Of a stretch of 64,000 nt of DNA, positions 34,726-58,703 are shown piece by piece (positions within the stretch are counted from its first letter, which is position 1; each line of letters begins with the position of its first letter). A program made the translations under genes and the position numbers. Origin of the DNA: Burkholderia sp. lig30 (lineage in GTDB: Bacteria; Pseudomonadota; Gammaproteobacteria; Burkholderiales; Burkholderiaceae); NCBI RefSeq assembly GCF_000687455.2, contig NZ_JGVW01000109.1:1-64000 (forward strand), written 5' to 3'. The notes under the pieces were generated by a model. It made no database searches. It had not been told where the DNA came from and worked only from the letters and a program-made list of their open reading frames with translations.

Positions 34726-34728
34726 GCC

Positions 34729-35295: not shown

Positions 35296-35430
35296 CCGCG
35301 GCGGCCGGCATTCTTGATGAACTTGACTGAAGACAGACCGTTCTGTATAAATATCGTCCAAGCCATTCCGAAACTCGATAGCCTTGCGCAAGGCTAATCG
35401 ACGGCCAAAATCCAATAAGGAAAAAAAGAC

Positions 35431-42601: not shown

Positions 42602-43453
42602 ATGTCCCTGCGAACTTCACCCCTCTATCGGGCCGACGTGTGGCTGTTGCAGACGCCTCCGCATTCACTGGCTCCGGTCACCCCCTATCTGGATCTGCTG
42701 AGCAAAGCAGAACAAGAAGCCGCACAACGAATTCTGATCACCAGCGAAAAGAATCTGTTCATACGGTCCAAGGCGTTTCTACGCATGTTGCTGTGCGCCC
42801 GCACGCACGTCGCACCCGATCAGTGGCGCTTCGGCTGCAACGCATTTGGGCGTCCATTCGTCGAATCGCCGCTAGCGTATAGCCACCTGCATTTCAACGT
42901 CTCTCACACGAAGGGCCTCACCGCCTGCGTGATCTCGGAACTGGTAGAAATTGGAATCGATGTCGAAAACGTCGCGCAAGAAAGAGACTTTCTCGCAATG
43001 GCGCGCGGCTTCTTTGCACACAGCGAATCCGAACGGCTCGCGGCGACGCCCGAGGCCGACCTGAGTCGGAACTTTTACGCCTATTGGACGCTGAAGGAGG
43101 CCTATGTTAAGGCCAAAGGGATGGGGCTATCCATACCTTTGTCGTCCATGTCTTTCGATCTGTCCGATGCGTCGGGCATTGCATTTCATGCCGAAGCGGA
43201 AGCGCATCCGGACGGATGGCGCTTCCTGAGTACGCCGGTAGCCGACGAAGCGATGCTTGCACTTGCCATTGGAATCGATGCGGACACCGAGGTGGAAATT
43301 GCGATGCATCGGGTCGCCCCAGAATTTCTAGGTGGCTTAAATGTCGAATCGAGCTACACGTGCGCACTGCGCCTGATCCGCTCAAGAAGTTGTGTCAGTA
43401 CCCGACCTGGGCCGACCTCGATGAATTCCGTTTCGCCTCGATCGAGCAAATAA
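42602..43453 (+). CDS. 4'-phosphopantetheinyl transferase (Sfp type)
   Basis: 283-residue enzyme that converts apo-ACPs to holo-ACPs. Motifs are FNVSHTKGLTACVIS, the Mg-binding GIDVENV, and WTLKEAYVKAKGMGL, all intact. It is the expected activator of the two ACPs of the adjacent operon. The last 40 or so residues (after MHRVAPEFLGG) do not look like the family and are read from the complement of the malonyltransferase gene: the two coding regions overlap tail to tail by 100 bp. The original stop may have been lost in a rearrangement. Confidence 0.9.
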   Translation: MSLRTSPLYRADVWLLQTPPHSLAPVTPYLDLLSKAEQEAAQRILITSEKNLFIRSKAFLRMLLCARTHVAPDQWRFGCNAFGRPFVESPLAYSHLHFNVSHTKGLTACVISELVEIGIDVENVAQERDFLAMARGFFAHSESERLAATPEADLSRNFYAYWTLKEAYVKAKGMGLSIPLSSMSFDLSDASGIAFHAEAEAHPDGWRFLSTPVADEAMLALAIGIDADTEVEIAMHRVAPEFLGGLNVESSYTCALRLIRSRSCVSTRPGPTSMNSVSPRSSK

Positions 43454-44208
43454 CGAATCGTGTCGGTCCACCGCACGGGAGCCGTCAGTTGCTGCTCCAG
43501 ACATGCTCGAACGCCGTCTGCGGCATACGGCCTTGCTCCGATATTAGCAATGACCGGTGTGGTGGGGTCGCGAAACGCCACCGTCGCCAATCGCTTGCCG
43601 AACTCGACGCGTGCCTCTTCCATCAAGGGCGAATGAAATGCGCCGCTCACATTGAGTTCCACGCACGCCGCGCCAAAGCGGTCCGCCAGCCACTGCAACG
43701 CGACGTGTAATTGGGCTGTCTCGCCCGAAATCACCGTTTGCGTCGGCGCGTTGAGATTGGCGACGTAGACGCGATCGAGCTGTGCCTCGCGCAACCCGGC
43801 ACGGATGTCCTGCTCGCCGATGCCCAATACCGCCGCCATGCCGCCCTTTCGCGCCTCACTCATGAGACAGCCGCGCAGCATCGTCAACTCGACGCCAGTG
43901 GCAAAGTCGATCGCGCCGGCGGCATGCAGCGCGTTGTACTCGCCAAGGCTATGGCCGATAAAGTATCGCGGCTTCGAGACGCCCTCCTCTTGCATCGCCA
44001 AGTAGTGCAATGCGTTGACCGTGAAAAGCGCCGGCTGCGTGTAGCGCGTGTTGTCGAGCTTGCCCTCCGTGTCGGCCTGGCACAGTGCCTCCATCGAGTA
44101 GCCTACGATACGGCTCGCCACGGCGGCTTCACCCGGAAACCGCGCGAATAGCTCGCCCCCCATACCCTTCTTTTGCGAGCCCTGGCCGGGAAACATGAAT
44201 ACGGACAT
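43354..44208 (-). CDS. Malonyl-CoA:ACP transacylase (FabD-like)
   Basis: 284-residue transacylase that loads malonyl units on ACP. The opening VFMFPGQGSQKKGMG, the nucleophile motif GHSLGEYNA and the catalytic histidine region GAFHSPLMEEA are intact. It is the last gene of the twelve-gene leftward operon. A dedicated MAT in addition to the housekeeping FabD supports a self-contained chain-building pathway. Its 3' end overlaps the convergent PPTase gene by 100 bp. Confidence 0.92.
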   Translation of the reverse strand: MSVFMFPGQGSQKKGMGGELFARFPGEAAVASRIVGYSMEALCQADTEGKLDNTRYTQPALFTVNALHYLAMQEEGVSKPRYFIGHSLGEYNALHAAGAIDFATGVELTMLRGCLMSEARKGGMAAVLGIGEQDIRAGLREAQLDRVYVANLNAPTQTVISGETAQLHVALQWLADRFGAACVELNVSGAFHSPLMEEARVEFGKRLATVAFRDPTTPVIANIGARPYAADGVRACLEQQLTAPVRWTDTIRYLLDRGETEFIEVGPGRVLTQLLERIRRSAHV

Positions 44209-44253
44209 ACGTTTTTCTCGTTACGTGAACCGGCCGCACGCGGCGCCCCCTCG

Positions 44254-45894
44254 TCAACCGGCCGGCTGACTCAGCCGGTCCACCAGCGCTTGCGCCACGG
44301 CACGCCGATCAATCTTGCCGTTGCCGTTCAACGGGAACCGCTCCATGAAGACGACTTCATCAGGCAGCATATAGTCGGGTAGCCGTTGCCGCAGCTCGCC
44401 TATCAAGCGCTGGCCTTCGCGCTCATCGTGCACCTTGGCCTCGCACACTGCGATGAGGCGTTCGTGCGGCGCTTGCGGCGGCCATGGCACGGCCACAGCG
44501 TTCGCATCGGCGCTGCAGGCACGCAGCGCCTGCTCGACTTCTCCCAACTCGATTCGATAGCCTCTGACCTTCACCTGATGATCGACGCGTCCGACGAAAC
44601 GCAGGCAGCCGCGCGCATCGAAGACCGCCCGGTCACCTGTTCGATAGAAACGTTGGCCGCTCGATGCGTCTTCGACGAAGCGCTTTGCGTTCTCCTCAGG
44701 CGAGTCGAGATAGCCCAGCGCCACTTGCGGCCCGCCGATGCATAACTCGCCAATTTCCTCGCCGGCGACAGCCACCCCGTTCTCGTCCCTCACGCTTGCG
44801 TGAAGCCCTCGGAACACGTTGCCAATCGGCACGACCTGCTCGTCGGCAAGCGCCCGGTCTTCGGTGCTCCACGCATACTCGGTGCAGCAGACCGTGGCCT
44901 CAGTCGGGCCGTACAGGTTGACAAGCTTCCCGGCCGGCGCCGCCGCCTGCCATACGCGCGCGGCCTGGACGATCAGCGCCTCGCCGCAGAAAAAGCTGTA
45001 TCGCAGGCCGCCGAAGGCGCCCGGCTTCAGTTGTCGCGCCGCCTGCATCGCCGTCACGGCGGATGGAACGGAAAACCACACCGTCAGACGCGAGCGGTTG
45101 ATATAGCGCGCAGGCAATACCTTATCGCCACCGGAAGGTACGCAGATGCAGCCCCCCACCTCCAGACACGCGAAGACGTCGAACACTGACAGATCGAACG
45201 TGAAATCGAAGTTCTGCGAAAAGCGGTCGGCCACCGTGAATGCATACCGGTCCGCTATCGCATCGAGAAAGTGGCGCACGTTGCCGTGGCTCACCATCAC
45301 GCCTTTAGGACGCCCCGTACTGCCAGACGTGAACAGCAAATAAGCCGGCGTATCGCGATGAATCTCCAGCGAGAGCGATTCGCTCGCCATCGTTTCGGGC
45401 GCCACCCGTCTGAAAACATGCGATGGCCAGGCTTCCTCCAAGGCTTCGACTTGCACCGCCGCGCTTTCTTCGGCAACATCGACAAGAACGGTCAATCGCC
45501 GCCCCGTGTGCGCAAGCATTGCGGGCAACGCACGCAGGCCTTCCTCGTCGGCAAAGACCAGCGACGTGCCGCTGCGCTCGATCATGTCGGCAAGCCGAAG
45601 TCCCGGCGCCGAGCAGGACAATGGCATGTAGCCCTTGCGGGCGGCTAGGATGCCCAACATGGCCGCATAGCCGTGAAGCCTTTTGCCGGCCAGCATGCCG
45701 ACCCACGGCGAGTCGGCGCCATCCGCACCGCAGGCCTCGACGGCGCCAGCGATGCTCAGCGCGAGACTTCGCATGTCGCCATAACTGAAGGTCCGATCCC
45801 CGAAGTCCAGCGCGATGCTCGCGGGACTCGCCGCCGCGCGCTCGAAAAAGCCCGCGTGCATAGCGTGGCATATCGTTTCTACGTTGCAGCTCAT
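44254..45894 (-). CDS. Free-standing amino acid adenylation enzyme
   Basis: 546-residue NRPS-type A domain without attached carrier protein. Core motifs are A3 LFTSGSTGRPKGVMVSHGN, A5 NLYGPTEAT, A7 YRTGDRAVF, A8 GRVDHQVKVRGYRIELGEVE and A10 NGKIDRRAV. Aligning by eye to GrsA gives a pocket of D-L-F-F-F-C-L-V-C-K. The Asp at the first position indicates an alpha-amino acid; the ends of the code resemble the proline-activating PltF/RedM type, while the centre is more aromatic. It probably loads the ACP encoded next to it (45953). The exact amino acid is not predictable from this. Confidence 0.9.
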   Translation of the reverse strand: MSCNVETICHAMHAGFFERAAASPASIALDFGDRTFSYGDMRSLALSIAGAVEACGADGADSPWVGMLAGKRLHGYAAMLGILAARKGYMPLSCSAPGLRLADMIERSGTSLVFADEEGLRALPAMLAHTGRRLTVLVDVAEESAAVQVEALEEAWPSHVFRRVAPETMASESLSLEIHRDTPAYLLFTSGSTGRPKGVMVSHGNVRHFLDAIADRYAFTVADRFSQNFDFTFDLSVFDVFACLEVGGCICVPSGGDKVLPARYINRSRLTVWFSVPSAVTAMQAARQLKPGAFGGLRYSFFCGEALIVQAARVWQAAAPAGKLVNLYGPTEATVCCTEYAWSTEDRALADEQVVPIGNVFRGLHASVRDENGVAVAGEEIGELCIGGPQVALGYLDSPEENAKRFVEDASSGQRFYRTGDRAVFDARGCLRFVGRVDHQVKVRGYRIELGEVEQALRACSADANAVAVPWPPQAPHERLIAVCEAKVHDEREGQRLIGELRQRLPDYMLPDEVVFMERFPLNGNGKIDRRAVAQALVDRLSQPAG

Positions 45895-45952
45895 GGGCCG
45901 TCATCCGTCTCTCGTTGATGCGCCGGCAACCGGCGCAGAAATCGCCGCGCGC

Positions 45953-46213
45953 TCAGTTGCCGAAGTGCTCGCCGATATGCGCGGGCGTCGCGAAGAATTG
46001 CGTCGACATCTTCTGGTCCGGCACGCTCACGTCCAGTTCGACCTCGAGCGCCGTGATGAACTCGACGAAGGTGACGGAATCCAGGATCCTAGAATCGAAC
46101 AACGGCGTGTCCGGCTCAATGTGAATGTCCAGTTCTTTGTGCGCCATGATGTGCTCCAGGATACCGATCACCTTCGCGACGAACGCGTTCTTTTCTGCAA
46201 TGCCGTTTTCCAT
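45953..46213 (-). CDS. Acyl carrier protein (partner of the adenylation enzyme)
   Basis: 86-residue acidic helical protein with the phosphopantetheine serine in RILDSVTFVEF (about residue 45). It lies between the thioester reductase (3 bp away) and the adenylation enzyme genes, so it is the likely peptidyl carrier for the activated amino acid. Its sequence is distinct from the second ACP at 49990, suggesting a separate job. Confidence 0.9.
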   Translation of the reverse strand: MENGIAEKNAFVAKVIGILEHIMAHKELDIHIEPDTPLFDSRILDSVTFVEFITALEVELDVSVPDQKMSTQFFATPAHIGEHFGN

Positions 46214-46216
46214 GAC

Positions 46217-47362
46217 TCAGGCCTTTACAAATTTTGGCGACAGCCCCCAGTTCATCTCGATGCAATGGTCGAGAATTCGAGGATAGTAGCCTTCGTAGTC
46301 GGGAACGGTGTCCATGTCCACGCCGAGCGCGGCGTTCAGCTTGTCGCGCTTGAACACCTTCGGGCAGAAGCATTCCTCCGCGCAGCTGTCGAGTATCCGG
46401 ACGACCTTCATGAACTCCATGTTCTCGATCGTCAAGATCGTCTTTTTGTAGAGCTGGTAGGTCGGCCACGTGACGATGTCCGGAGAGTTGTACGATCCTT
46501 TTCGCCACGACGCCGAATGCTTCGCGTAGGTTTGTGCCGTTAACTCGAGCCAGCGCTCCGTCGTGGGAGATCTTTCCCCGGCACTGATCTGGTATGTATC
46601 CCCGCCCTTGAAGTGCTCACCGAACAGTGTCATGAAGCATTCGGCAGAGTAGTCGTATGGCAGAAAATCCAGCGGACAGCTCGAGATGCCCGGGAAGCAT
46701 GGCGCGATGCCCCGGTACATGAACATCAGGTAGCGGTGTATCGCCCCATAGTCGTTCACATAGCCATCGCGCAAACACCCCATCAGCAGCGACATCCGAT
46801 AAACCGTAATCGGCAGGCGCGACATGTACTGGCGAATCAGCAGTTCGGCTTCGTACTTCGACTCCTCATAGCCCATCGTGACGAACCCCTCGCTGTGCTC
46901 CAGCTCGTGCTCGAAGATGTCGCCGCTGCGCCGTCCCGCCACATAGAGCGTACTGACATGTGCGAATTTCCGCAGACGCGCGCAATCGGTTGCAAGACGA
47001 AGAACGTTGCGCGTGCCCTCGACGTTGATGATGCGGCTGCTGTCGAGCGGCTCGTCGAAGTCGACGGTCGCCGCGCTGTGAATGATCTCCTCGACGCCGT
47101 CGCACAATGACTGCACCTGCGCGACGGACAGGCCTAAGTGCGGCTTCGTGATGTCGCCGGCGAGCGGCGTGAAGGCCGGCACGTCCTCGGGCTTCACTTC
47201 GCCATCCGACGCGATCGCAAGGAGCCTGGTCCATCGCTCCACGAGCTTTTGCGGATCGCTCGCGCGAATCAGCGCGACGACCTCCTTGTCCTTGTAATCG
47301 CGCAACAGGATGCGGAGGATCTCAACTCCGAAGGCTCCTGTAATTCCCGTAACAAATAACAT
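46217..47362 (-). CDS. Free-standing thioester reductase (extended SDR)
   Basis: 381-residue NAD(P)H-dependent reductase of the type found as R domains in NRPS and carboxylic acid reductases. The coenzyme motif is FVTGITGAFGVEILR at the N-terminus. HVSTLYVAG supplies the Ser/Thr, and YEESKYEAE holds the Tyr-Lys pair. R domains release carrier-bound acyl chains as aldehydes or alcohols. With no thioesterase in the cluster, this is the best candidate for product release or for reduction of the amino acyl-ACP. Confidence 0.85.
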   Translation of the reverse strand: MLFVTGITGAFGVEILRILLRDYKDKEVVALIRASDPQKLVERWTRLLAIASDGEVKPEDVPAFTPLAGDITKPHLGLSVAQVQSLCDGVEEIIHSAATVDFDEPLDSSRIINVEGTRNVLRLATDCARLRKFAHVSTLYVAGRRSGDIFEHELEHSEGFVTMGYEESKYEAELLIRQYMSRLPITVYRMSLLMGCLRDGYVNDYGAIHRYLMFMYRGIAPCFPGISSCPLDFLPYDYSAECFMTLFGEHFKGGDTYQISAGERSPTTERWLELTAQTYAKHSASWRKGSYNSPDIVTWPTYQLYKKTILTIENMEFMKVVRILDSCAEECFCPKVFKRDKLNAALGVDMDTVPDYEGYYPRILDHCIEMNWGLSPKFVKA

Positions 47363-47386
47363 GCGGTACCCCTTGCCCTAAATGCC

Positions 47387-48367
47387 TTAAGCCTCAAGAA
47401 TCATGCAGCCCCAATGCGCGCCGAGCCCAAACGTGTAGAGCATCGTCAGGTCGCCTTCGGACAGACGCCCTTCGGCCGCCGCATCCTTGAGGTTGATGAA
47501 GTTGTCGGCGGCGATCGAATGACCCATCTGTGCGATGTTGCCGGTGTACACGTGCTCGATCGGATAGCCGATCAAGTCGCTCAGAATCTGCCAGCTGCGC
47601 AAGCTAACGTTGTGCGGAATCATCAGCGAGATGTCGTCTAGCTTCATGGCCGCATTCTTCAACGTCTTCTGGACGATTCGGCTTCCGGTAGTGAAGTACG
47701 ACGCCATCATCTCGTTCTGGCGGCGATCGCTGTCCCAGTAGTAGCCGCGCGTCATCGCCTCGTACGTGACGATTCGGTTGCGCGTCTCGCCGCGCTTGAC
47801 GACGACGGCGCATGCCGAATCGCTGACGACGTTGTAGACCACTTCCCGCTTGTAACCATCGGGAAACTTGTCGACGTTCACACACACGGCGATGTCCTTG
47901 CGTTCCTCGATCATCAGCGCACGAGCGGTCCAGATCGCCGTCATGAGCGACGAGCAGCTGACTTCGCTCAAGCCCATCGTCTTCGCGTTCACGAGGCCTA
48001 GCTCATCCTGGATTCGTGCGCTGGAATTCATGAACTGCTGCAGATGCCGGTTCTCGTTGGTCGTCGGTGCCGAGTAGTTCGGCGGCACGAGCGAACTCTC
48101 CGAGATCGCGGTGGCATTGATGAGGAGATCGACATCCGCGGGATCTATATTCGCTTGCTTGAGCACGCGGCCGACCACTTCGGCGGCGGCCGCCGTAGCG
48201 GGACGGTCCCACATGAGGCCGTACTCGAAGCCCAGTTCTTCCATGGCCTCGGGCGTACTGATCAGCAGCCCCTTGTCGTGCAACTCGCGCACTGAATGGC
48301 GAATCGGCGGTACCAAATACTCGATGGCATGGATACCGAACGCGTTCGATTGATCGATGGTCGACAT
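47387..48367 (-). CDS. KASIII-like ketosynthase with altered catalytic triad
   Basis: 326-residue thiolase-fold enzyme related to FabH. The nucleophile is Cys138 (SEVSCSS) and the first histidine is His252 (IPHNVS). The position of the usual Asn, in the motif G-N-x-x-x-A, is His283 here (MGHSIAADNF), giving Cys-His-His. KASIII enzymes start chains from acyl-CoA or join acyl groups. The change suggests either an unusual starter or an acyl-transfer role. The start lies a few bases from the ICMT-like gene stop, inside the same operon. Confidence 0.88.
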   Translation of the reverse strand: MSTIDQSNAFGIHAIEYLVPPIRHSVRELHDKGLLISTPEAMEELGFEYGLMWDRPATAAAAEVVGRVLKQANIDPADVDLLINATAISESSLVPPNYSAPTTNENRHLQQFMNSSARIQDELGLVNAKTMGLSEVSCSSLMTAIWTARALMIEERKDIAVCVNVDKFPDGYKREVVYNVVSDSACAVVVKRGETRNRIVTYEAMTRGYYWDSDRRQNEMMASYFTTGSRIVQKTLKNAAMKLDDISLMIPHNVSLRSWQILSDLIGYPIEHVYTGNIAQMGHSIAADNFINLKDAAAEGRLSEGDLTMLYTFGLGAHWGCMILEA

Positions 48368-48369
48368 GC

Positions 48370-48966
48370 TTATCGCCCCGCCACGTTCGAAGACTTGTTG
48401 ATCGGAATGAACGCCCGCACCCGTGCCTTGTAGTCATCGAACTGCTTATCGAATTTCTGCTTCATCGCCTTGGACTCGCAGGTTGCCAAGTAGATGTTGA
48501 AGCAGATCATGTAGGCGAAAATGCTGGCGATGGTGTATGACACGTATTCCGGGTAGATCGACATGCTCGGGAAAATCACGAAGAACGCGCCGATCTCGAA
48601 CAGGATCGTCCCGGTGTAGAGCGGATGACGCAGGCGCGAATAAATTCCGTGGTTAACGATGGTTGTCTCGGGTAGGTGATAGCCCGCCCAAGTATGGTAG
48701 CGGCCGAGAGTCAGCTTGGCGGCCATGACAAGGGAGGCTCCGGCTGCGGTAACCACGAGCGCGACGATATCGAACCATTCGATCGCCTTCAGCGTGATGA
48801 GCAGGTACGCGTATAGGACCAACATCGTCAGGGAAAGCAGCTTCATAATAGAAATCCACGGCCCGGTGATGAGCGGCTTCATGCCTTTCTTGTGGCGAAT
48901 ATCGAAAACGTAGAAGACGAATACTGCAAACACGACGAGCGCTACCGCCATGAATATGGTAATCAT
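48370..48966 (-). CDS. ICMT/PEMT-like membrane methyltransferase
   Basis: 198-residue membrane protein with about four or five helices. The C-terminal half holds the isoprenylcysteine carboxyl methyltransferase family motif RLRHPLYTGTILFEIG and the downstream YLATCESKAMKQKFD region that binds S-adenosylmethionine. The family methylates carboxyl, thiol or amine groups of lipophilic substrates at the membrane. In this cluster it may make a methyl ester or methylate another group on a fatty product; the acceptor is unknown. Confidence 0.85.
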   Translation of the reverse strand: MITIFMAVALVVFAVFVFYVFDIRHKKGMKPLITGPWISIMKLLSLTMLVLYAYLLITLKAIEWFDIVALVVTAAGASLVMAAKLTLGRYHTWAGYHLPETTIVNHGIYSRLRHPLYTGTILFEIGAFFVIFPSMSIYPEYVSYTIASIFAYMICFNIYLATCESKAMKQKFDKQFDDYKARVRAFIPINKSSNVAGR

Positions 48967-49053
48967 TTTTATGCCTGTTAGGATAACTATGAAATATGAA
49001 ATGATCTTTCAATCATAATGCAGGCCTGCTCAGCGGTTGACGGCCTTGCGGCG

Positions 49054-49947
49054 TCAGTGGACGGCAAGCCTCATCTTGTCCAAGAATGCGCGTGCGTTCG
49101 CACGCCAAGCATTCTCAATTTCGATTCGCCGCGGAATGGTCTGCGCTTCTTGCGCAACTGCCGTCGGATTCTTGATGCCGATCTTCTTATAGACGACAGG
49201 CGAATAGAGGCTCTTCACCGCAACCCGGCCATAGTCGTCCAGAAGCTTCGCGATCAGCTTCATCTCGTCGCGAAGGCCCGCCGCTTCCAGCCGCTTGACG
49301 CAGAACTCGATCACTTCGCGGTCGAACGCCATGTGACGCGCTTCTTCGTCGTGGTGAAAGCGATGAATCTGCCGGACCGTGACATCGAGCCGCTCATCGC
49401 GCATCGCACCGGTATTCAGGTAGTCGAGGAACATTTCCAGGACGAAGACGCGGCCAAAGAACAGCAGTTCGGTCCCGACGTCGCTCAGTCTGGGCTCTTC
49501 CACCTGAATGGCGTAGTCCTTCATCACTCCATCACCGTAGCGATAGCAATAACCCGCGAGCATGTGCGTGTGGGCGTTTTCTTCGTGAATGAAATGCTGC
49601 AGGTAGTTGCCAATATCCCACGAGCCACCGAATCTCGACGGCACGTAGAGCCGTTCCTCCAAGCCCTGCACAAGCTTTCTTTCACCGTGTATGTTGATGG
49701 AAAAGAAGTTGACTGTCTCCAGCAGCCCCAGCGTCCATTTCTGCTCGGCGCTCAGGCTGGCATAAATGGGGTGGTGGTAAAGACTCAGGAGTTCCTCCGG
49801 AAACTGAGGACGACTCCTGTCCAGCTCCGCCTGATATGTGACGCGCGTAAACGGCTGATGCAATCCCTTGCCGGGACTAAGCGAAATTACAGAAAGCCGC
49901 GTGGCCACGTCGTTCAGTCTGGCTTGCCAATCCTCTAGCGTATCCAT
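49054..49947 (-). CDS. AurF-like diiron N-oxygenase
   Basis: 297-residue helical oxygenase. The residues fit the seven-ligand diiron site of AurF: E89, E123 and H126 (ENAH), E171 (VLEMF), and H198, E202, H205 (HxxxExxH in HHDEEARH). AurF and relatives oxidise amines to hydroxylamine, nitroso or nitro groups. Its position between the two ACP groups, together with an amino acid-activating enzyme, suggests oxidation of an amine on the building block or product. It is the strongest sign that the product carries an oxidised nitrogen. Confidence 0.85.
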   Translation of the reverse strand: MDTLEDWQARLNDVATRLSVISLSPGKGLHQPFTRVTYQAELDRSRPQFPEELLSLYHHPIYASLSAEQKWTLGLLETVNFFSINIHGERKLVQGLEERLYVPSRFGGSWDIGNYLQHFIHEENAHTHMLAGYCYRYGDGVMKDYAIQVEEPRLSDVGTELLFFGRVFVLEMFLDYLNTGAMRDERLDVTVRQIHRFHHDEEARHMAFDREVIEFCVKRLEAAGLRDEMKLIAKLLDDYGRVAVKSLYSPVVYKKIGIKNPTAVAQEAQTIPRRIEIENAWRANARAFLDKMRLAVH

Positions 49948-49989
49948 ATGCGTGTATTCCCGATTTGCCGATTGCGCAGCGCCAGACGA

Positions 49990-50250
49990 TTACTCCGTGA
50001 CCTTCTCGTCGACGATCTGCGCCAGCAGATTGATCAGGTCGTCGAGGCATTTGAGTTGGCCCAGCTTGTCGCGCGGAACCTGCACGTTGAGCTTGCGCAT
50101 GCTGGCTGAGACGACTTCGAGTATGTCGATGCTCGTCGCGCCCAGCTCTTTCATCGACTGGCGCGTGTCGATCTCCTGGTACTTCAGTTCGGGCAGCGTG
50201 CGCTTGACGAAGCCGACAATGATTTCGCGGATTTCTTGAACATCAGCCAT
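49990..50250 (-). CDS. Acyl carrier protein
   Basis: 86-residue acidic carrier protein with the attachment serine in LGATSIDILEVV (about residue 38). Its neighbours are the enoyl reductase-like SDR, ketoreductase, ketosynthase and dehydratase, so it is the likely carrier for chain elongation. Confidence 0.9.
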   Translation of the reverse strand: MADVQEIREIIVGFVKRTLPELKYQEIDTRQSMKELGATSIDILEVVSASMRKLNVQVPRDKLGQLKCLDDLINLLAQIVDEKVTE

Positions 50251-50261
50251 CTGGTTGCTCC

Positions 50262-51089
50262 TTAGGTTGAAATTGAACGGTCAGCTACCTCGCGCTGCTG
50301 ATCCGAGTAAATCCTCATGAATGTGTCGAAGAAGTGGAATCCCTTGTCGACGGAAATCACTTCGCCGCGCACCGCATCCATGTATCCGCTGCACAGGCCG
50401 AGGATCGCGCTAGCCACGGCGCGCGGGTCGAGGTAGTAGCGGTCGAGCTCGAACTCGCGCGCCTTGTCGGCGAACGCGTCGCCGAACGTGAGGCGCATCG
50501 ACTCCGACTTGACCATGCCCGCTCGCACCACGTTGATGCGGATATCCTCGTCGTACAGCCGGTAGTTCGCGTACCGGCACAGTGTTTCGAGGACGCTCTT
50601 GGACGCCGACATGAAGTCGTAGTTATGCAGGTACTGCCCCGCCCCGGCGCTCGACATACCAATCGCGTACTTTGGATAGGCGCCGAAGGTCCGCTTGATC
50701 CGCTTGATGCCGCCGTAGAGCGGCCATGCGCTCGATTCGATCGACTGGAACAGCGCCCGCTTGTAATAGCTCTCGAAGTCGGGCACGAGTTGCGCGACCG
50801 AAACGTTCGAAATCCATGCCGCAACCTGGTCGTGCTCCACCCTGATGGCGTCGAACAGCGCCTGCGTCTGCTCTTCGTTCGCCGCGTTGCACTGAATGAT
50901 GCACGGCCGCAACGCACCGATAGCCTCGAAGCGCCGGTACACCTCGTCCAGATCGGCGCTGCCGAGATGAAACGTCAGATAGCAACGTGCGCCTTCGGCC
51001 GCGAAGGCCAGCGCCGTTTCCAGCCCGATGCCGCGCGTCGCGCCCGTCACGACGACGGCTTGATTGTCGTAATCGACCAAGGTCTTCAT
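50262..51089 (-). CDS. SDR with FabL-type Tyr-x6-Lys motif, candidate enoyl-ACP reductase
   Basis: 275-residue SDR. The coenzyme motif is TGATRGIG. The active site reads NYDFMSASK: the lysine is preceded by methionine at the usual Tyr-x3-Lys position and by tyrosine seven residues earlier, giving Tyr-x6-Lys. This spacing marks enoyl-ACP reductases of the FabI/FabL type, and TGxxxGxG with Tyr-x6-Lys is the FabL combination. It would saturate the double bond left by the dehydratases. The ATG at 51089 is used; the frame continues upstream into the FabG gene. Confidence 0.8.
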   Translation of the reverse strand: MKTLVDYDNQAVVVTGATRGIGLETALAFAAEGARCYLTFHLGSADLDEVYRRFEAIGALRPCIIQCNAANEEQTQALFDAIRVEHDQVAAWISNVSVAQLVPDFESYYKRALFQSIESSAWPLYGGIKRIKRTFGAYPKYAIGMSSAGAGQYLHNYDFMSASKSVLETLCRYANYRLYDEDIRINVVRAGMVKSESMRLTFGDAFADKAREFELDRYYLDPRAVASAILGLCSGYMDAVRGEVISVDKGFHFFDTFMRIYSDQQREVADRSIST

Positions 51090-51099
51090 CACAGCCCTC

Positions 51100-51840
51100 T
51101 CAGGGTACCCAGTCCAGCGCGGAAGTGACCGGCAGGCAGGTTCCATTGATGTATGCCGCCTCGGGCTGCGCGAAAAACATGACTGCGGAGGCCACCTCGG
51201 CGGCGCTGCCGACGCGGCGCAGCGTGCTATGGGCTTCCCAGAATCTGCCGTGCACATCGGACATGTTTTCGCGCGACATGTCGGTATCGATCATGCCCGG
51301 CGCGACAACGTTGCTCGTGATGCCACGCTTGCCGTATTCCTTCGCGATGGTACGCGACAGCCCGAGGAGCCCGGCTTTCGTGGCCGCGTAGTTCGCCTGC
51401 CCCGACAGGCCGTCCCGGCTCAGCGAGGACAGGAACACGAAGCGGCCGAAGCGCTTCTCAAGCATCGCTGGCACGAACGCACGCGCCACATGGAACGCTC
51501 CCGTGAGATTAACCTCCAGCACGTCGGACCACTCCTCGTCCGACATCGACATCAGCAGCGCGTTGCGATTCACCCCTGCGTTCGAGACCACGACGTCGAC
51601 CGTGCCGAAGTCGCGCAGCACACTGTCGGCGAACGCATCCACCGCGGCGGAGTCGCGCACGTCGAGCGGATACGCCTTGCATGCGGCATCCGCGTGAATC
51701 GAGCGGGCATGCTCAACGATGCGCTGCGCCGCCGCCTCGTTCGTGTTGTACGTAAACGCGACGCTGTGCCCGGCGGCGACCGCCTGTGCGACGATCTCGG
51801 CGCCAATGCCACGGGAGCCGCCGGTAATGACGAAGATCAT
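51100..51840 (-). CDS. 3-ketoacyl-ACP reductase (FabG-like)
   Basis: 246-residue classical SDR: ITGGSRGIGAEIV for NADPH, SNAGVNRNALLM, catalytic Ser in FLSSLSRDG, Tyr-Lys in NYAATK and the end PEAAYINGTCLPVTSALDW. It reduces the beta-keto group after each condensation. The ATG at 51840 overlaps the ketosynthase stop by 4 bp, so the two are translationally coupled. Confidence 0.92.
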   Translation of the reverse strand: MIFVITGGSRGIGAEIVAQAVAAGHSVAFTYNTNEAAAQRIVEHARSIHADAACKAYPLDVRDSAAVDAFADSVLRDFGTVDVVVSNAGVNRNALLMSMSDEEWSDVLEVNLTGAFHVARAFVPAMLEKRFGRFVFLSSLSRDGLSGQANYAATKAGLLGLSRTIAKEYGKRGITSNVVAPGMIDTDMSRENMSDVHGRFWEAHSTLRRVGSAAEVASAVMFFAQPEAAYINGTCLPVTSALDWVP

Positions 51841-53138
51841 CGCTTTTCCTCCGTTTCCGGTGCTTTCAAGATCGAAACGCAATTGATGCCGCCGAAGCCG
51901 AAGGAGTTCTTCATCAAATAGCGGATCTCCAGTTCACGGTTCGCGTTCGCGGTCACGTCGAGCGTCACCCGCGGATCGAGTTCGTCGACGTTGATCGTCC
52001 TATGTATCTTGCCGCGCTGCATCTGCAGCACCGCCGCCACAAGCTCGACGACCGGCGCCGACCAGCACGTGTGCCCGAGCAGGCTCTTGGGCGCATTGAT
52101 ATGCAGATTGCGCGCGTGCTCCCCGAATACGTTCTGGATGGCCCGTAACTCGCTGAGGTCGCCTTGCGGTGTCGAGGTGGCGTGCGCGCTCACGTAGTCG
52201 ATTAAGAAGGGCTCGATCTGCGCGGAGCCGAGCGCCCGGCGCATCGCTTCGGCTTGCCATTCGGCCGACGGCGTCGGCAAATGACTGGCCGACGAGGTCG
52301 CCTCCGCCGCCAAAACCTGCGCGTAGTAAGTCTGGCCGGCGGACCTCGCCGCCTGACGCTTCTCCAGGACGAGCGCCCCGCCCCCGTGCGCTGGGACGAA
52401 TCCTTCGCGCCGCATGTCGTACGGGCGGCTTGCCCGATGCGGCGAATCGACGAACCCGTCGAAGGAGATCGCGCCGAGCAGCGCCATGCCGTGCAGCATG
52501 ACCGGCGACCAGTCGAACACGGGGCCGACGACAATCACCGTCTCGAGGCCATGATGCTTGAGTTCGTCGATGGCGTTGCGCACAGCGACGTTTCCGCTCG
52601 CGCACGCCGCGCCGATCGTATAGACGGGGCCATAGATGCCCAGCACCTCCGAAACCGCCGCCGCATGGTCGGTGTCGAGCGTCTGCAGACCGTACAGCGA
52701 ATCGATGTAGTCGGGCTCGCGATCGAATTGCGTTCGATTGTCGAAATCATAGTTGACGTTGATGTTGTGTCCCGAGACGATCACGCCGATACGCGCGGGG
52801 TCCATCTTGCGCTCGAACAGGCCCGCATCGGCGCAGGCGTCCACGGACAGCGTCGTCGTGATCTTGGTGCTCCACGGCAGCTTGACATGCAGCTTGCGCA
52901 GGCGCCGCCAGACGTCGCCGGGAATCCGCCCCTCAAGCGATTGCAACTTCGCCTCGAGATCGTAGGCGCCCAGGTCCGCGCCGATCTTCGAATAGATTCG
53001 CGAAGCGTCGATCGAATGCCAGTTAGAAAGCGCGGACTTGCCGTCGTACATCGCATCGATGAAGCCGTCCAGCGTGTCGCCGAGTGGCGTGTTGATCGAC
53101 ATTCCCGTTATCACGATTTCGTCACGCTCACTCACCAA
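51837..53138 (-). CDS. Beta-ketoacyl-ACP synthase (KAS I/II type), divergent
   Basis: 433-residue ketosynthase with an intact triad: Cys179 (IGAACASG), His319 (VSAHATST) and His356 (KSLLGHTCW). It is clearly divergent from housekeeping FabF, with an insertion-like N-terminal region (residues 45-95) and SGHNINVNYDFDN before the active site. Since all three residues are present it is a condensing enzyme and not a chain-length factor of the Cys-less type, although it may pair with the second KS (53889). It overlaps the dehydratase upstream by 11 bp. Confidence 0.9.
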   Translation of the reverse strand: MVSERDEIVITGMSINTPLGDTLDGFIDAMYDGKSALSNWHSIDASRIYSKIGADLGAYDLEAKLQSLEGRIPGDVWRRLRKLHVKLPWSTKITTTLSVDACADAGLFERKMDPARIGVIVSGHNINVNYDFDNRTQFDREPDYIDSLYGLQTLDTDHAAAVSEVLGIYGPVYTIGAACASGNVAVRNAIDELKHHGLETVIVVGPVFDWSPVMLHGMALLGAISFDGFVDSPHRASRPYDMRREGFVPAHGGGALVLEKRQAARSAGQTYYAQVLAAEATSSASHLPTPSAEWQAEAMRRALGSAQIEPFLIDYVSAHATSTPQGDLSELRAIQNVFGEHARNLHINAPKSLLGHTCWSAPVVELVAAVLQMQRGKIHRTINVDELDPRVTLDVTANANRELEIRYLMKNSFGFGGINCVSILKAPETEEKR

Positions 53139-53649
53139 CGTACACCTCCACGATCACAGTAGTCCGCACCGCGCCGTCACTCCCCACGATTCGGCCACCG
53201 AAAACAGACAGGAATGGCGACACCTCGAATGTCTTCACTTCGATATTCACCATCTCGCCGGGCTTCACCTCTCCGGTGAATTCGGCGTACAGCACTTTGA
53301 TTGCCCTCACTCGCGCGCCGGCTGCACTCGCCTCAGTGACAGTGTTGTGCGAAGCGATTTTCACGAGGCAAACGCCGGCCTGGGCAATCGCTTCCACGAG
53401 GAGTACACCCGGATAAACGGGATCGCCCGGAAAATGTCCTTCGAATACGGGGTCGTCGTGATCGATGGACATTGTCGCCGCAATCGCAGTTCGATCATGG
53501 GAAATATGCGTCAAGCCGCTGATTAGCAGCATATTTCCCCGATGCGGCAGAAGGTCTTTTATATCCACCCGTATTTCAATTGGCTGGTTTACCAAAACCT
53601 CTCGACTTTCTTTAATCCAATTATCAAGAAATTCTCTCAGCACTCTCAT
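53128..53649 (-). CDS. 3-hydroxyacyl-ACP dehydratase (FabZ-like)
   Basis: 173-residue hot-dog fold enzyme with the FabZ signature HFPGDPVYPGVLLVE: His72 and Glu86 have the usual spacing of 14. The first 25 residues are an extra helical leader. It is the first gene of the leftward operon, so the promoter must lie in 53650-53888. It dehydrates 3-hydroxyacyl-ACP to enoyl-ACP. Confidence 0.9.
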   Translation of the reverse strand: MRVLREFLDNWIKESREVLVNQPIEIRVDIKDLLPHRGNMLLISGLTHISHDRTAIAATMSIDHDDPVFEGHFPGDPVYPGVLLVEAIAQAGVCLVKIASHNTVTEASAAGARVRAIKVLYAEFTGEVKPGEMVNIEVKTFEVSPFLSVFGGRIVGSDGAVRTTVIVEVYVGE

Positions 53650-53698
53650 TCCTTATTTTCTATTTCGCAAAACTCTAACACTGCGCCCAACACGGAAA

Positions 53699-53718
53699 AC
53701 CTATAAAAAATACCAGTA
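53699..53718. promoter_or_regulatory. Degenerate lux-box-like site in the divergent promoter region
   Basis: ACCTAT-N8-CCAGTA keeps five of the six bases of the CTG-N10-CAG core in correct register (CTA-N10-CAG). It lies 50 bp upstream of the leftward operon and 170 bp upstream of the rightward ketosynthase. A chance match is possible. Confidence 0.35.
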
Positions 53719-53888
53719 CACGGAGGCCGAAAGCCACACCATAATCGGCTGACGGAATGGTGCACAGATGCTTGGGAGCGAGTCCGTCTGGATTACCGAC
53801 GCAACTTCAATCTCAGGATCGCGTGCATGGAGGCAATCAGCTATTTTCGAAAACATGACGTTTCCATGCGATATCAAATAGGAAAAAG

Positions 53889-55130
53889 ATGAACAAACGA
53901 AGAGTCGTTGTCACCGGTCTTGGTGCCATTTCTCCGGTCGGAATCGGCGTCGAGGAAAATTGGTTGAATGTTGTTGCTGGCCGCAGTGGGATCGGCCGGG
54001 TCACTTTTTTCGATACGACGGATTTTCCGGCGCAAATCGCAGGCGAGATCAAGGGGTTCGACGCTACCCACTTCATTTCCGAAAAAGAGGTCCGTCATAT
54101 GGACCGCTTCATTCAGCTCGGCGTCGTGGCCGGCATGGAGGCATTCGCCGACAGCGGCCTCAACGTGACCGATGCGAACGCCCACCGGATCGGTGTTCAC
54201 GTCGGCTCGGGAATCGGCGGCGTCCAGACCATCGTCGATACCGCCTTCACGATGAAGGACAAGGGGCCGCGTCGGGTGTCACCGTTCTACGTGCCGTCGT
54301 CCATCATCAATATGGTCGCGGGCCATCTCTCGATCCTGTACGGGCTCAAGGGGCCTAACCTCGCCATGGCGACAGCGTGCTCGACGGCGACGCATGCGAT
54401 CGGCGACGCCGCCCGGCTGATCGAGTATGGCGATGCCGACGTAATGATCGCTGGCGCCGCGGAAGCGGCCATTACAGAGAGCAGCCTCGCGGGGTTTGGC
54501 CGGGCCAAGGCGCTATCGACGCGCAACGACGACCCCGAAACGGCGAGCCGCCCCTGGGACGCCGAGCGCGACGGCTTCGTGCTGGGTGAAGGTGCGGGCA
54601 TCGTCGTGCTCGAAGAACTGGAGCACGCGCGCCGGCGCGGCGCCCGGATTTACGCGGAACTGGCCGGATTCGGCCTGAGCGGAGACGCATTCCATATCAC
54701 TAGCCCGTCGGAAAACGGAGAGGGCGCGGCGCGCTGCATGCTCAATGCCTTGCGCAATGCGGGCGTCACAGCAGATAGCGTGCAATACGTCAATGCGCAT
54801 GGCACATCGACGCCGCTTGGCGATCTTGCTGAAACTGCCGCGTTGAAGGCTGCCTTCGGTACGCACGCCAAGGGCCTCGCGATCAGTTCGACGAAATCGG
54901 TGACGGGGCACCTGCTAGCCGCAGCGGGCGGCATCGAGGCCGTCTACACCTCGCTCGCCATACATCACCAAGTCGCGCCGCCCACCGCTAACCTGACCCA
55001 ACCCGACCCGGAATGCGACCTCGACTACGTGCCAGTCACCGCCCGGCACATGCCGATCGACGTCGCGCTCTCAAATTCGTTCGGCTTCGGCGGCACGAAT
55101 GGAACGCTGGTGTTCCGCCGGCTCAGGTGA
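53889..55130 (+). CDS. Beta-ketoacyl-ACP synthase II (FabF-like)
   Basis: 413-residue ketosynthase close to FabF: Cys164 (ATACSTATHA), His304 (NAHGTST) and His341 (KSVTGHLL), with the C-terminal NSFGFGGTNGTLVF. It is divergent from the main operon across a 239-bp regulatory region. It may elongate the chain alone or with the divergent ketosynthase at 51837. Confidence 0.93.
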   Translation: MNKRRVVVTGLGAISPVGIGVEENWLNVVAGRSGIGRVTFFDTTDFPAQIAGEIKGFDATHFISEKEVRHMDRFIQLGVVAGMEAFADSGLNVTDANAHRIGVHVGSGIGGVQTIVDTAFTMKDKGPRRVSPFYVPSSIINMVAGHLSILYGLKGPNLAMATACSTATHAIGDAARLIEYGDADVMIAGAAEAAITESSLAGFGRAKALSTRNDDPETASRPWDAERDGFVLGEGAGIVVLEELEHARRRGARIYAELAGFGLSGDAFHITSPSENGEGAARCMLNALRNAGVTADSVQYVNAHGTSTPLGDLAETAALKAAFGTHAKGLAISSTKSVTGHLLAAAGGIEAVYTSLAIHHQVAPPTANLTQPDPECDLDYVPVTARHMPIDVALSNSFGFGGTNGTLVFRRLR

Positions 55131-55214
55131 TGCAGCCGCTTCTGCAAACATAGTCAAGGTAGTGTTGAAAGACTAGACGCGCAATGCCCATCGCACCAGC
55201 CCACCAGCCGATTC

Positions 55215-55730
55215 CTAAGCGACGGCCAGGCTGCGCGACACCATCGCGACATTCAATTCGACGTTTAAAATTTTGATGCCGCCAGCGTCCCGCGCGATGG
55301 CCGTCGCCTCGTAGTACTTTCCTTCCATCACGGGCCGCACGTCGACGTCGAACCAGACCATTTCTCCCGGCCGCACTGATTGATGCAAACGACATGCCTT
55401 GAGGCCCGCGAGCACTGGCATCTGCTCAGGCACTTCATCGCCGCCCTCCTCCTTCGAAACCGTGCCAAGCACCACTCCAACCGCTTGAGCCGCAGCCTCG
55501 ACCAAGAACACGCCTGGAACAATGGGAAGTCCCGGGAAGTGCCCTTGCAGATGCGGGTGAGCGGCATCCCAGCAAGCCTGCGCGTTCACATGCCACCCTT
55601 GCACAGTCGCCGTGTGCAGGAACAGTGCGTGATCGCGATGCTGCAAGAGCCATTCGATCGCAGCCCGGTCGCAAACGACCGCGCCCGTTTCGTCGGCACG
55701 CTTCGCCTGTGACAAGGTGTTGAATTCCAT
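55215..55730 (-). CDS. 3-hydroxyacyl-ACP dehydratase (FabZ-like), second copy
   Basis: 171-residue hot-dog protein with HFPGLPIVPGVFLVE (His64, Glu78). It is only distantly similar to the first dehydratase. It lies 49 bp downstream of the luxR gene on the same strand and is probably cotranscribed with it, so its expression may follow the regulator. It converges on the FabF-like gene. Confidence 0.88.
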   Translation of the reverse strand: MEFNTLSQAKRADETGAVVCDRAAIEWLLQHRDHALFLHTATVQGWHVNAQACWDAAHPHLQGHFPGLPIVPGVFLVEAAAQAVGVVLGTVSKEEGGDEVPEQMPVLAGLKACRLHQSVRPGEMVWFDVDVRPVMEGKYYEATAIARDAGGIKILNVELNVAMVSRSLAVA

Positions 55731-55779
55731 CGGAAATATCCCTTTATGCCCCCGCGCGGCAGCGCGTTTGGGCGGAGGT

Positions 55780-56553
55780 TCAAAGAGGTGCGACCAAGCC
55801 TTCGGAAATGGCGCGAATCACGGCTTGCGCACGCGTTTGCACGCCGAACTTCCTGGTCACGTTGTAGACATGGAAATTGATCGTCGCCTCCGAGCATGAA
55901 AGAATTCGCGACATCTCCCAGCTCGTCTTTCCTGCCGTCACCCATCTCAGGCATTCGAGTTCGCGCGGCGTCAGAGCGGTGACAGGCCCTCCAGTCTCTT
56001 CGATACGGGAGACGTTGAAATACGATTCGCATGCGAAATCGCGAAGCAATGACAACGAGGCACGAATCCGCACATCCTCGCGAGGGGGGCCATCCGAGGC
56101 GAAGCAAAGTATGCCAGCCTGCCCCTGCGGCCCGTAAATCGGATAGCCGATACCCGATCGAAGTCCGTACCGGCTGCCCTCTTCATAGAATTCCCGCTGC
56201 CGATCGGAGGCGAATGTCGTTTCATCCCACAGCAGCGGATGCACATGGCGGTGACAGTGCAGTGCGATCGGATCGATTTCGTAATAACACCTGTCATACA
56301 GGTGGCGCCACGCTGTCGAGAAATTGGTTTGAACAAAGGCCGATCGGCACGATACAGCCCTCGATGATTTTATACCGAAATAAACGAAAGGAAATCCATA
56401 CTGACGAGCCAACTTGAACATGGATGCCGACCATTCGCTCATATTTTTGCATTCGAGCAACTCAAGCATTGCATTCAAATTTTCGACCTCATCCATCGAA
56501 AGCACGATATTAATTAAAACATCAACTGACACATCAATATATCGATATACCAA
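55780..56553 (-). CDS. LuxR family quorum-sensing regulator (orphan in this window)
   Basis: 257-residue regulator. The N-terminal autoinducer-binding domain keeps the residues that line the acyl-homoserine lactone pocket: Trp82, Tyr86, Asp94, Pro95, Trp109 and a Gly near 134. The C-terminal GerE helix-turn-helix (about 190-250) reads LTPRELECLRWVTAGKT and SEATINFHVYNVTRKFGV. No luxI homologue is in the window, so it either listens to a distant synthase or to outside signals. A lux box lies about 280 bp upstream. It is the obvious regulator of the cluster. Confidence 0.92.
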   Translation of the reverse strand: MVYRYIDVSVDVLINIVLSMDEVENLNAMLELLECKNMSEWSASMFKLARQYGFPFVYFGIKSSRAVSCRSAFVQTNFSTAWRHLYDRCYYEIDPIALHCHRHVHPLLWDETTFASDRQREFYEEGSRYGLRSGIGYPIYGPQGQAGILCFASDGPPREDVRIRASLSLLRDFACESYFNVSRIEETGGPVTALTPRELECLRWVTAGKTSWEMSRILSCSEATINFHVYNVTRKFGVQTRAQAVIRAISEGLVAPL

Positions 56554-57932: not shown

Positions 57933-58703
57933 GAGCCGCTAACACAACTGGATGAGGCGGTGAACCAGACGTATCGTTCGGTGCATGGCGAGAAGAAAAG
58001 TCAGAAACGAGTTGTGGGCGGCGTTGGAGCCGTTGATTCCGGTATTTGTGTCGTCACCGAAAGGCGGGCGTCGCCGTTCAGTTGATGGTCGCACGGCCCT
58101 GAACGGAATTCTGTACGTTCTGCACACGGGTATTCCATGGGAAAAATTGCATCTGCCCATGTAGACGAAGCTGCGTGCATATGACCAGAACGATTGAGAA
58201 CGGGCCAGCATCGATGGAGCCAGCGTGCCCAGCCCCGGGGGGCAGGGAAACCGGGCCGAACCCAACAGACCGTGGCAAGCTCGGAAGCAAGCGACACCTC
58301 ATCGTAGATGCCCGAGGCGTTCCGCTGGCGCTGACCGTGACAGGTGCCAATCGGCATGACTCAGTGGCGTTCGAGCGGACGATTGATGCAATCCCGGCCG
58401 TGCCGAACTTGAATGGGCGGCCGCGTAAACGACCGGGCAAGCTGCACGCCGATGAGGGATATGACTTCAGCCGGTGCCGGCAATACCTGAGGCAGCGAGG
58501 CATCATCGCTCGACGAGGTGTGGAGAGCAAGGGGCGCTTGGGCAAAGCACCGATGGGTTATCGAGCGCACCCATGCGTGGTTTGCCGGCTTCGGCAAGCT
58601 GCGCATTCGCTTTGAGCGACGGCTGGATATTCATCTTCCCTGGCTTTCACTGGCTGCTGCCAGCTTCTGCTCTCGCTTCGTCGATGACTTGTGTTAGATA
58701 CTC
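57933..58703 (+). mobile_element. Degenerate IS5-type insertion sequence with TAA target duplication
   Basis: 771-bp element bounded by imperfect 15-bp terminal inverted repeats: GAGCCGCTAACACAA (57933-57947) and the complement of 58689-58703, GAGTATCTAACACAA (12 of 15 identical). TAA flanks both ends (57930-57932 and 58704-58706), the 3-bp duplication usual for the IS1031/IS5 group. The transposase inside is broken, so the copy cannot move by itself. Confidence 0.8.
57985..58696 (+). pseudogene. IS5-family transposase, internally deleted and frameshifted
   Basis: The N-terminal piece (57985-58164) reads RRKVRNELWAALEPLIPVF and GILYVLHTGIPWEKL, then stops at TAG. A large internal part is missing. 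The DDE-domain part resumes in other frames: RASIDGAS, RGKLGSKRHLIVDARGVPLA, LHADEGYDFSRCRQYLRQRG, then after another shift VIERTHAWFAGFGKLRIRFE and the usual end RFVDDLC. Several frameshifts and a deletion make it non-functional. Confidence 0.85.

What the first reader, a model, noticed from the sequence alone, without database searches (positions are those of the whole stretch)
42602..56553. Cryptic amino acid-linked dissociated FAS/PKS cluster with an N-oxygenase
Seen: a near-contiguous set of PPTase, MAT, A domain, two ACPs, thioester reductase, KASIII, ICMT-like methyltransferase, AurF-like oxygenase, enoyl reductase-like SDR, KR, two KS, two DH and LuxR. Known: each family has a defined role in chain building, amine oxidation or reductive release; the Burkholderia fragin (ham) pathway also uses an AurF-like enzyme, and other Burkholderia make polyenes with discrete FAS-like enzymes. 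Inference: the combination of a full reducing FAS set with a free A domain, R domain and N-oxygenase predicts an N-oxidised lipid (for example hydroxylamine, nitro or N-N bonded) that I cannot match to a known product.
Basis: partly seen in the sequence, partly recalled or inferred. Interest (0 to 1): 0.9.

Follow-up and report, generated by a model that had tools for sequence, protein, structure and literature searches.

The report
Predicted glycine-nitronate lipid gene cluster
A set of sixteen genes, met in these searches in only two distant bacteria, looks built to oxidise the nitrogen of glycine and join it to a fatty chain made on the spot, which would give an unusual nitrogen-oxidised lipid.

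Summary
Twelve genes, including A and AurF, form one minus-strand run with gaps of at most 87 bp; eleven keep order and orientation in a Hyphomicrobiaceae MAG at 41-68% identity, so this is one inherited unit. New here: (1) the A domain has the glycine determinants of AlmE; (2) ACP2, not ACP1, matches a carrier family that sits beside AurF-like enzymes and class-II aaRS-like ligases; (3) the AurF homologue keeps all seven AurF metal ligands and lacks the CylC halogenase motif; (4) 14 of 14 loci with this AurF subtype have an amino-acid-activating enzyme close by, against 0 of 6 with remoter homologues. This fits published glycine-nitronate chemistry better than fragin. Best reading: Gly-ACP2 is N-oxidised to a nitronate-type unit, KASIII joins it to a chain from a dedicated FAS, R reduces and ICMT methylates. 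A distant cluster has an aaRS-like ligase and a FAAL-like ligase instead of A and FAS. Substrate, order of steps, KASIII reaction and product are inferred. New variant of a known kind.

The parts
42602..43453 (+). 4'-phosphopantetheinyl transferase (activates the carrier proteins)
   Evidence: Pfam ACPS 63.4 bits; no homologue found in L004 or the rest of its contig
43354..44208 (-). FabD-like malonyl transferase (MAT)
   Evidence: TIGR00128 fabD 293.6 bits, over cut-off; no homologue found in L004
44254..45894 (-). Free-standing A domain, predicted glycine (code DLFFFCLVCK)
   Evidence: AMP-binding 218 bits; nearest solved chains of residues 1-345: 8k4r, 6akd, 4oxi; code; 48% to L004, 41% to the Azospirillum A beside AurF
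45953..46213 (-). ACP2, predicted aminoacyl carrier
   Evidence: PP-binding 29 bits; HMM of carriers beside AurF: 30.2 bits, against 0.2 for ACP1
46217..47362 (-). Free-standing thioester reductase (R)
   Evidence: NAD_binding_4 171 bits; TIGR01746 132 bits, below its cut-off; 62% to L004
47387..48367 (-). KASIII-like enzyme (KS3), C138/H252/N277
   Evidence: ACP_syn_III_C 63 bits; 68% to L004; residues; low-confidence model matches FabH chains first
48370..48966 (-). ICMT-like membrane methyltransferase
   Evidence: ICMT 31.6 bits; 49% to L004
49054..49947 (-). AurF-like diiron N-oxygenase
49990..50250 (-). ACP1, FAS/PKS-type carrier
   Evidence: PP-binding 25 bits; 63% to L004; not matched by the aminoacyl-carrier HMM
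50262..51089 (-). Enoyl-reductase-like SDR (Y-x6-K)
   Evidence: adh_short_C2 112 bits; best NCBIfam FabL-like, below cut-off; 54% to L004
51100..51840 (-). Ketoreductase (KR)
   Evidence: adh_short_C2 185 bits, KR 63 bits; 63% to L004
51837..53138 (-). Ketosynthase b (PRK07103-like), active-site Cys present
   Evidence: ketoacyl-synt and C-terminal domain, PRK07103 330 bits, below cut-off; 65% to L004
53128..53649 (-). Hotdog dehydratase 1 (FabZ-like)
   Evidence: FabA-like 72 bits; 47% to L004
53889..55130 (+). Ketosynthase a (FabF-like), divergent from the main run
   Evidence: TIGR03150 fabF 636 bits, over cut-off; 45% to L004 but 61% to an ordinary-looking FAS block of Ideonella, so the least cluster-specific gene
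55215..55730 (-). Hotdog dehydratase 2
   Evidence: FabA-like 49.7 bits; in L004 only a 28-residue match inside DH1
55780..56553 (-). LuxR-type regulator with autoinducer-binding domain, no LuxI beside it
   Evidence: Autoind_bind 93 bits, GerE 68 bits; the one LuxI over cut-off in the genome is on another contig

Best explanation
The cluster makes a glycine-derived, N-oxidised (nitronate, nitro or oxime) lipid. The PPTase activates two carriers. The A domain loads glycine on ACP2. The AurF-like diiron enzyme oxidises the carrier-bound amine towards a nitronate. MAT, KSa, KSb, KR, DH1, DH2 and the ER-like SDR build a chain on ACP1. KS3 forms the bond between the two halves. R releases the product as aldehyde or alcohol, and the ICMT-like membrane enzyme methylates it, possibly at the nitronate or oxime oxygen. 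Favoured mode (about 0.37): the acyl chain from ACP1 is joined to the glycine unit on ACP2, and R reduces the ACP2 thioester. Alternative mode (about 0.28): the glycine unit primes the chain. Shown: gene content, tight run, conservation, catalytic residues, glycine-type code, carrier type. Inferred: substrates, order of steps, the KS3 reaction, the product, the site of methylation.
For: Same unit in L004, 12 of 16 genes at 41-68% identity. Code DLFFFCLVCK in the window, DLFFLCLIAK in L004; PMC11253843 names L248 and C316 as glycine determinants of AlmE, and both positions are kept. ACP2 matches the aminoacyl-carrier HMM at 30.2 bits, ACP1 at 0.2. Seven AurF ligands kept; fold nearest CmlI and AurF. 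In 14 of 14 loci with the EENxH AurF subtype an amino-acid-activating enzyme lies within 3.4 kb (9 aaRS-like, 5 with A domains); in 6 of 6 with the DExRH subtype no aaRS-like gene, no such carrier and no A domain was found in the stretch held. An Azospirillum plasmid has A (same code as L004), carrier, SAM methyltransferase and AurF in a row, close to the set that PMC9967187 describes for enteromycin-class compounds: glycine, diiron oxygenase, nitronate O-methyltransferase. Five of the 14 have a nitronate monooxygenase near AurF (L005, L008, L013, L014, L015). G075 keeps KS3, AurF, aminoacyl carrier, R, ICMT and PPTase but has an aaRS-like ligase and a FAAL-like ligase with another ACP in place of A and FAS, which fits a coupling role for KS3.
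Against: No product or activity is known. Six AurF relatives in aaRS- or A-linked loci (L013-L016, L032, L033) have Ile where AurF has E101, so the subtype is not uniform and its chemistry may differ between branches. The A code also fits D-Ala: DltA has the same L and C (PMC11253843); 6akd/IdnL7 takes Gly, Ala and Ser. With the whole A domain as query, two-domain LgrA chains rank first. The best plasmid relative of the A domain (Solidesulfovibrio, 43%) has no oxygenase annotated near it. Unrelated carriers of L017/L018 score 8-15.5 bits on the carrier HMM. The methyltransferase is ICMT-like, unlike the SAM methyltransferase of Azospirillum, and could act on a carboxylate. KS3 of G075 and G827 lacks the His and Asn of the triad. 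G075 matches for ICMT and PPTase are weak (E 0.003 and 0.008). He and Ryan 2021 is not held; its content is recalled, plus what citing passages say.
Confidence: 0.65

Rival explanations
1. Priming mode: KS3 transfers the glycine-derived unit from ACP2 onto malonyl-ACP1, the FAS set extends and reduces it, and R releases an omega-nitronate (or nitro/oxime) fatty aldehyde or alcohol. (A sub-version of the best explanation; its odds are part of the 0.65.)
For: KASIII enzymes are the usual primers (recalled); the window and L004 KS3 keep the C-H-N triad. In the dob pathway a carrier-bound hydrazonoacetyl unit, made from lysine and glycine, is proposed to be extended with malonyl by a PKS (PMC13061610, passages).
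Against: The distant cluster in G075 keeps KS3 with no elongating KS, KR, DH or MAT found in the 19.9 kb held, and its KS3 has no His/Asn in the triad.
Confidence: 0.28
2. Ham/Pvf-like: A, ACP2 and R act as a split NRPS with reductase; AurF makes an N-hydroxy aminoacyl unit and R releases an N-hydroxy amino aldehyde that is later N-acylated with the FAS chain.
For: HamD is an NRPS with a reductase domain, and HamC, an AurF homologue, oxidises the tethered valine (PMC11659414, passages); R, ACP2 and A are neighbours here and in L004.
Against: Glycine-type A code; no cupin, haem-oxygenase-like or cyclase gene among the 16; tblastn of the AurF in plasmid records, which include Burkholderia megareplicons, gave 15 records and none of Burkholderia at E 1e-5. 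HamC itself was not compared directly.
Confidence: 0.13
3. The AurF-like enzyme acts on the fatty chain (CylC-type halogenase or C-H oxidase), and the A domain only supplies an amino acid cap.
For: CylC-type enzymes are AurF-like, and NocO chlorinates an ACP-bound dodecanoyl chain (PMC12101540, passages).
Against: CylC enzymes have QExxH; the window has EENAH, with an acid kept at the AurF D135 position, as in 14 of 14 EENxH relatives. All seven AurF ligand positions are kept.
Confidence: 0.05
4. The FAS chain and the amino-acid module are two pathways that happen to share an operon, or the cluster is silent in this strain.
For: The amino-acid half occurs without the FAS half in G075; expression is unknown.
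Against: All 16 reading frames are open, gaps in the main run are at most 87 bp, and the interleaved order (ACP1-AurF-ICMT-KS3-R-ACP2-A) is the same in an alphaproteobacterial MAG.
Confidence: 0.12

Closest known systems
Glycine-derived nitronate pathway (enteromycin carboxamide; He and Ryan, Nat Chem 2021: title seen in a reference list, content recalled; described in passages of PMC9967187)
   Same: Carrier-bound glycine, AurF-like diiron oxygenase, a methyltransferase, amino-acid-activating enzyme beside the carrier
   Different: There the unit goes into amide or NRPS/PKS products; here it is tied to a dedicated reducing FAS, a KASIII, a reductive release and an ICMT-like methyltransferase, with no nitronate monooxygenase
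ham/pvf clusters (fragin, valdiazen)
   Same: AurF-like enzyme; amino acid on a carrier with reductive release
   Different: No N-N bond partners seen here; glycine-type code; discrete A, ACP and R; full FAS set
dob cluster (4-diazo-3-oxobutanoate, PMC13061610)
   Same: Carrier-bound nitrogen unit with carbon from glycine, AurF/CmlI-like FDO, C-C bond by a ketosynthase
   Different: dob builds a hydrazone by way of N-hydroxylysine; no such genes among the 16 here
AlmE, IdnL7 and (recalled for 8k4r) VinM stand-alone A domains
   Same: Nearest solved relatives of the substrate-binding half of the A domain; small amino acids
   Different: Those serve lipid A glycylation or a starter-unit dipeptide in macrolactams, not N-oxidation
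Class-II aaRS-like amino acid:carrier ligases (Mocibob and others 2010, named in PMC2922099)
   Same: Presumably the same job as the A domain here; same carrier family beside AurF
   Different: The window and L004 have an A domain in that place

Membership tests
Glycine-nitronate pathway (carrier-bound) | AurF-like diiron oxygenase with N-oxygenase ligand set | tested here: met
Glycine-nitronate pathway (carrier-bound) | Enzyme that activates glycine | tested here: inconclusive
   Code has AlmE's D, L and C, but DltA (D-Ala) shares L and C; no assay
Glycine-nitronate pathway (carrier-bound) | Dedicated aminoacyl carrier | tested here: met
   ACP2 30.2 bits, L004 ACP2 24.7 against an HMM of 5 such carriers; ACP1 0.2; other carriers 3.5-15.5
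Glycine-nitronate pathway (carrier-bound) | Nitronate O-methyltransferase or nitronate monooxygenase | tested here: inconclusive
   ICMT-like methyltransferase present, its substrate unknown; no NMO among the 16 genes
Glycine-nitronate pathway (carrier-bound) | Nitronate formed in vitro | not testable with these tools
   needs enzymes
ham/pvf (diazeniumdiolate) clusters | HamA/HamB/HamE-type partners in the cluster | tested here: not met
   No haem-oxygenase-like, cupin or cyclase family among the 16 genes
ham/pvf (diazeniumdiolate) clusters | NRPS with A, carrier and reductase | tested here: inconclusive
   A, ACP2 and R are adjacent but separate genes
CylC-type dimetal halogenase | QExxH motif | tested here: not met
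   EENAH in the window; motif from PMC12101540
AurF/CmlI arylamine N-oxygenase | Fold and ligands | tested here: met
AurF/CmlI arylamine N-oxygenase | Aryl amine substrate made by the cluster | tested here: not met
   No pabB or aminodeoxychorismate-type gene among the 16; A code is that of a small amino acid
Discrete (type II) reducing FAS/PKS | KS, KR, DH, ER, ACP, MAT as separate genes | tested here: met
   ER by Y-x6-K and a FabL-like score below its cut-off

The most novel reading that the evidence does not exclude
KS3 joins a long acyl chain to a carrier-bound nitroacetyl (nitronate) unit without decarboxylation, because the nitronate is already a stabilised carbanion, and R then reduces the ACP2 thioester. 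The product would have the carbon skeleton of a sphingoid base with a nitro (or O-methyl nitronate) group at C2: a route to nitro-sphingoid lipids that uses no serine palmitoyltransferase. The loss of the His and Asn, which serve malonyl decarboxylation in FabH (recalled), in the G075 and G827 KS3 would then make sense.
Probability: 0.25. Interest if true: 0.85.

Novelty: new variant of a known kind. Interest (0 to 1): 0.62.

Why it matters
It predicts a lipid with a glycine-derived nitronate or nitro head, a kind of product that the text searches made here did not show; it names the carrier that bears each half and gives a concrete 15N-glycine test. It also shows A domains and aaRS-like carrier ligases in the same place beside the same AurF subtype, which bears on what the aaRS-like ligases are for.

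Tried and rejected

Papers: passages only were seen of PMC13061610 (plus abstract and section list), PMC11659414, PMC12930378, PMC11284099, PMC11253843, PMC9967187, PMC2922099, PMC12101540, PMC8406957; others in search listings. Recalled, from no call: 8k4r as VinM; the content of He and Ryan 2021 beyond its title; the roles of the FabH His and Asn; that KASIII usually primes; FabZ, FabI and carrier motifs. 6AKD as IdnL7 and 4OXI as AlmE come from PMC11253843.
Full report
1. What is there. DH1, KSb, KR, ER, ACP1, AurF, ICMT, KS3, R, ACP2, A and MAT run on the minus strand from 53649 to 43354 with gaps between -11 and 87 bp. KSa is divergent on the plus strand, DH2 and LuxR lie beyond it on the minus strand, and the PPTase faces the end of the run.

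2. It is one inherited unit. One of them, L004 from a Hyphomicrobiaceae MAG, holds homologues of 12 of the 16 genes at 41 to 68% identity; eleven (DH1 to A) have the same order and orientation. KSa lies upstream, on the same strand as the rest rather than divergent; as KSa is closer (61%) to an ordinary-looking FAS block of the Ideonella genome than to L004's copy (45%), it is the weakest of the twelve. PPTase, MAT, DH2 and LuxR were not found in that locus or in the rest of its contig. The other five loci show AurF without the FAS set in the DNA held.

3. It is rare and looks acquired. KS3 was found in 1 of 399 genomes of the order, 2 of 398 of the phylum and 1 of 297 of the order of L004's genome; each count includes the own or L004's genome. 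An AurF search of 101 relatives matched only the own genome, G075 and, weakly, G073, the last two of other families. The 16 genes have 52-65% G+C against 67% and 70% for the flanking aminotransferase and glcD. Both flanks align at 87% with two congeners, G009 and G024, but nothing over 150 bases between window 41749 and 58844 does; in those congeners the same flanks enclose about 25 and 45 kb of other DNA. A DDE transposase fragment lies at 58175-58615.

4. What the A domain loads. The nearest solved relatives of residues 1-345 are 8k4r, 6akd (IdnL7: Gly, Ala, Ser) and 4oxi (AlmE: Gly); with the whole protein the two-domain LgrA chains come first. The ten-position code reads DLFFFCLVCK, in L004 DLFFLCLIAK. 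PMC11253843 attributes AlmE's choice of glycine to L248 and C316; the alignment puts L and C at these places in the window. D-Ala (DltA) shares them, so glycine is favoured, not proven.

5. Which carrier does what. An HMM of five carriers that lie beside AurF scores ACP2 30.2 bits and L004 ACP2 24.7, but ACP1 0.2 and L004 ACP1 -0.6; four other carriers used for comparison score 3.5 to 15.5. So ACP2 is most likely the aminoacyl carrier and ACP1 the fatty one.

7. Company of this AurF subtype. I examined 20 loci: the window, L004-L008, L028 (the same contig as L009), L026 (G075) and 12 of the 15 plasmid records. Fourteen have the EENxH subtype. In nine an aaRS-like ligase is present (L005, L007, L008, L013, L014, L015, L026, L032, and L028 cut by the contig end); the other five have A domains (window, L004, L006, L016, L033). 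All lie within 3.4 kb of AurF. Twelve of the 14 have the carrier type (all but L006 and L016). The six remaining loci (L034-L039) have the DExRH subtype and none of the three genes, with about 4 kb held on each side (L039 only 1.5 kb on one side). Five of the 14 have a nitronate monooxygenase near by (L005, L008, L013, L014, L015). In the Azospirillum plasmid, A with the code DLFFLCLIAK, carrier, SAM methyltransferase and AurF stand in a row before an NRPS and a PKS, and that A domain is third in the list of 2,706 plasmid records for the window's A; the first (Solidesulfovibrio) has a carrier but no oxygenase annotated near it. [quoted passage not shown]

8. A distant cluster that tells the roles apart. 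G075 (same order, L026) has KS3 (26%), AurF (33%), the aminoacyl carrier, an aaRS-like ligase, R (21%), PPTase, a rubrerythrin-like protein, a second ACP, an ICMT-like protein, a FAAL-like AMP-binding protein (by its DIP2-like C-terminal match, under that family's cut-off) and an MMPL transporter, and no elongation enzymes in the 19.9 kb held. The aminoacyl half with KS3, R and ICMT is kept, while the source of the amino acid (A or aaRS-like) and of the fatty chain (FAS or FAAL-like) differ. This argues that KS3, R and ICMT work where the two halves meet. Its KS3 keeps Cys but has Gln and no Asn where the window has H252 and N277.

9. Mechanism. Gly to ACP2; N-oxidation by AurF; chain on ACP1; union by KS3; reductive release; methylation. 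The first two steps rest on codes, residues and company; the rest on family knowledge. Coupling (0.37) is preferred over priming (0.28) because of G075.

10. Verdict. The parts are known; the combination of the glycine-nitronate cassette with its own FAS, KASIII and R was not seen in the text searches made (and the nine others), so I call it a new variant of a known kind.

Noticed in passing
L040 13500-31968 (Streptomyces sp. NBC_00335 plasmid): A cluster with pabB, KS/CLF, FabI, FabG, AurF-like oxygenase, aminoacyl carrier and aaRS-like ligase: perhaps a p-aminobenzoate-primed chain with a glycine-nitronate end.
   Followed up: partly
L026 9289-19819 (G075): KS3-AurF-carrier-aaRS-like-R-PPTase-rubrerythrin-ACP-ICMT-FAAL-like-MMPL cluster without FAS genes; product unknown.
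   Followed up: partly
L013, L014, L015, L016, L032, L033: AurF-like proteins with Ile at the place of AurF's metal ligand E101, while another Glu twelve residues earlier is kept in all 19 aligned relatives.
   Followed up: partly
window 58175-58615: DDE transposase fragment (DDE_Tnp_1, 40.6 bits) between the cluster and glcDEF.
   Followed up: partly
window 55780-56553: LuxR-type regulator without a LuxI beside it; the genome's one LuxI over the cut-off lies on contig C95.
   Followed up: partly
L017 and L018: Agrobacterium vitis and Rahnella megaplasmids with KASIII-like, several AMP-binding, carrier and P450 genes and no diiron oxygenase annotated in the stretch shown; unknown product.
   Followed up: no
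window 34001-36000: Local drop of G+C to 56%, not examined.
   Followed up: no
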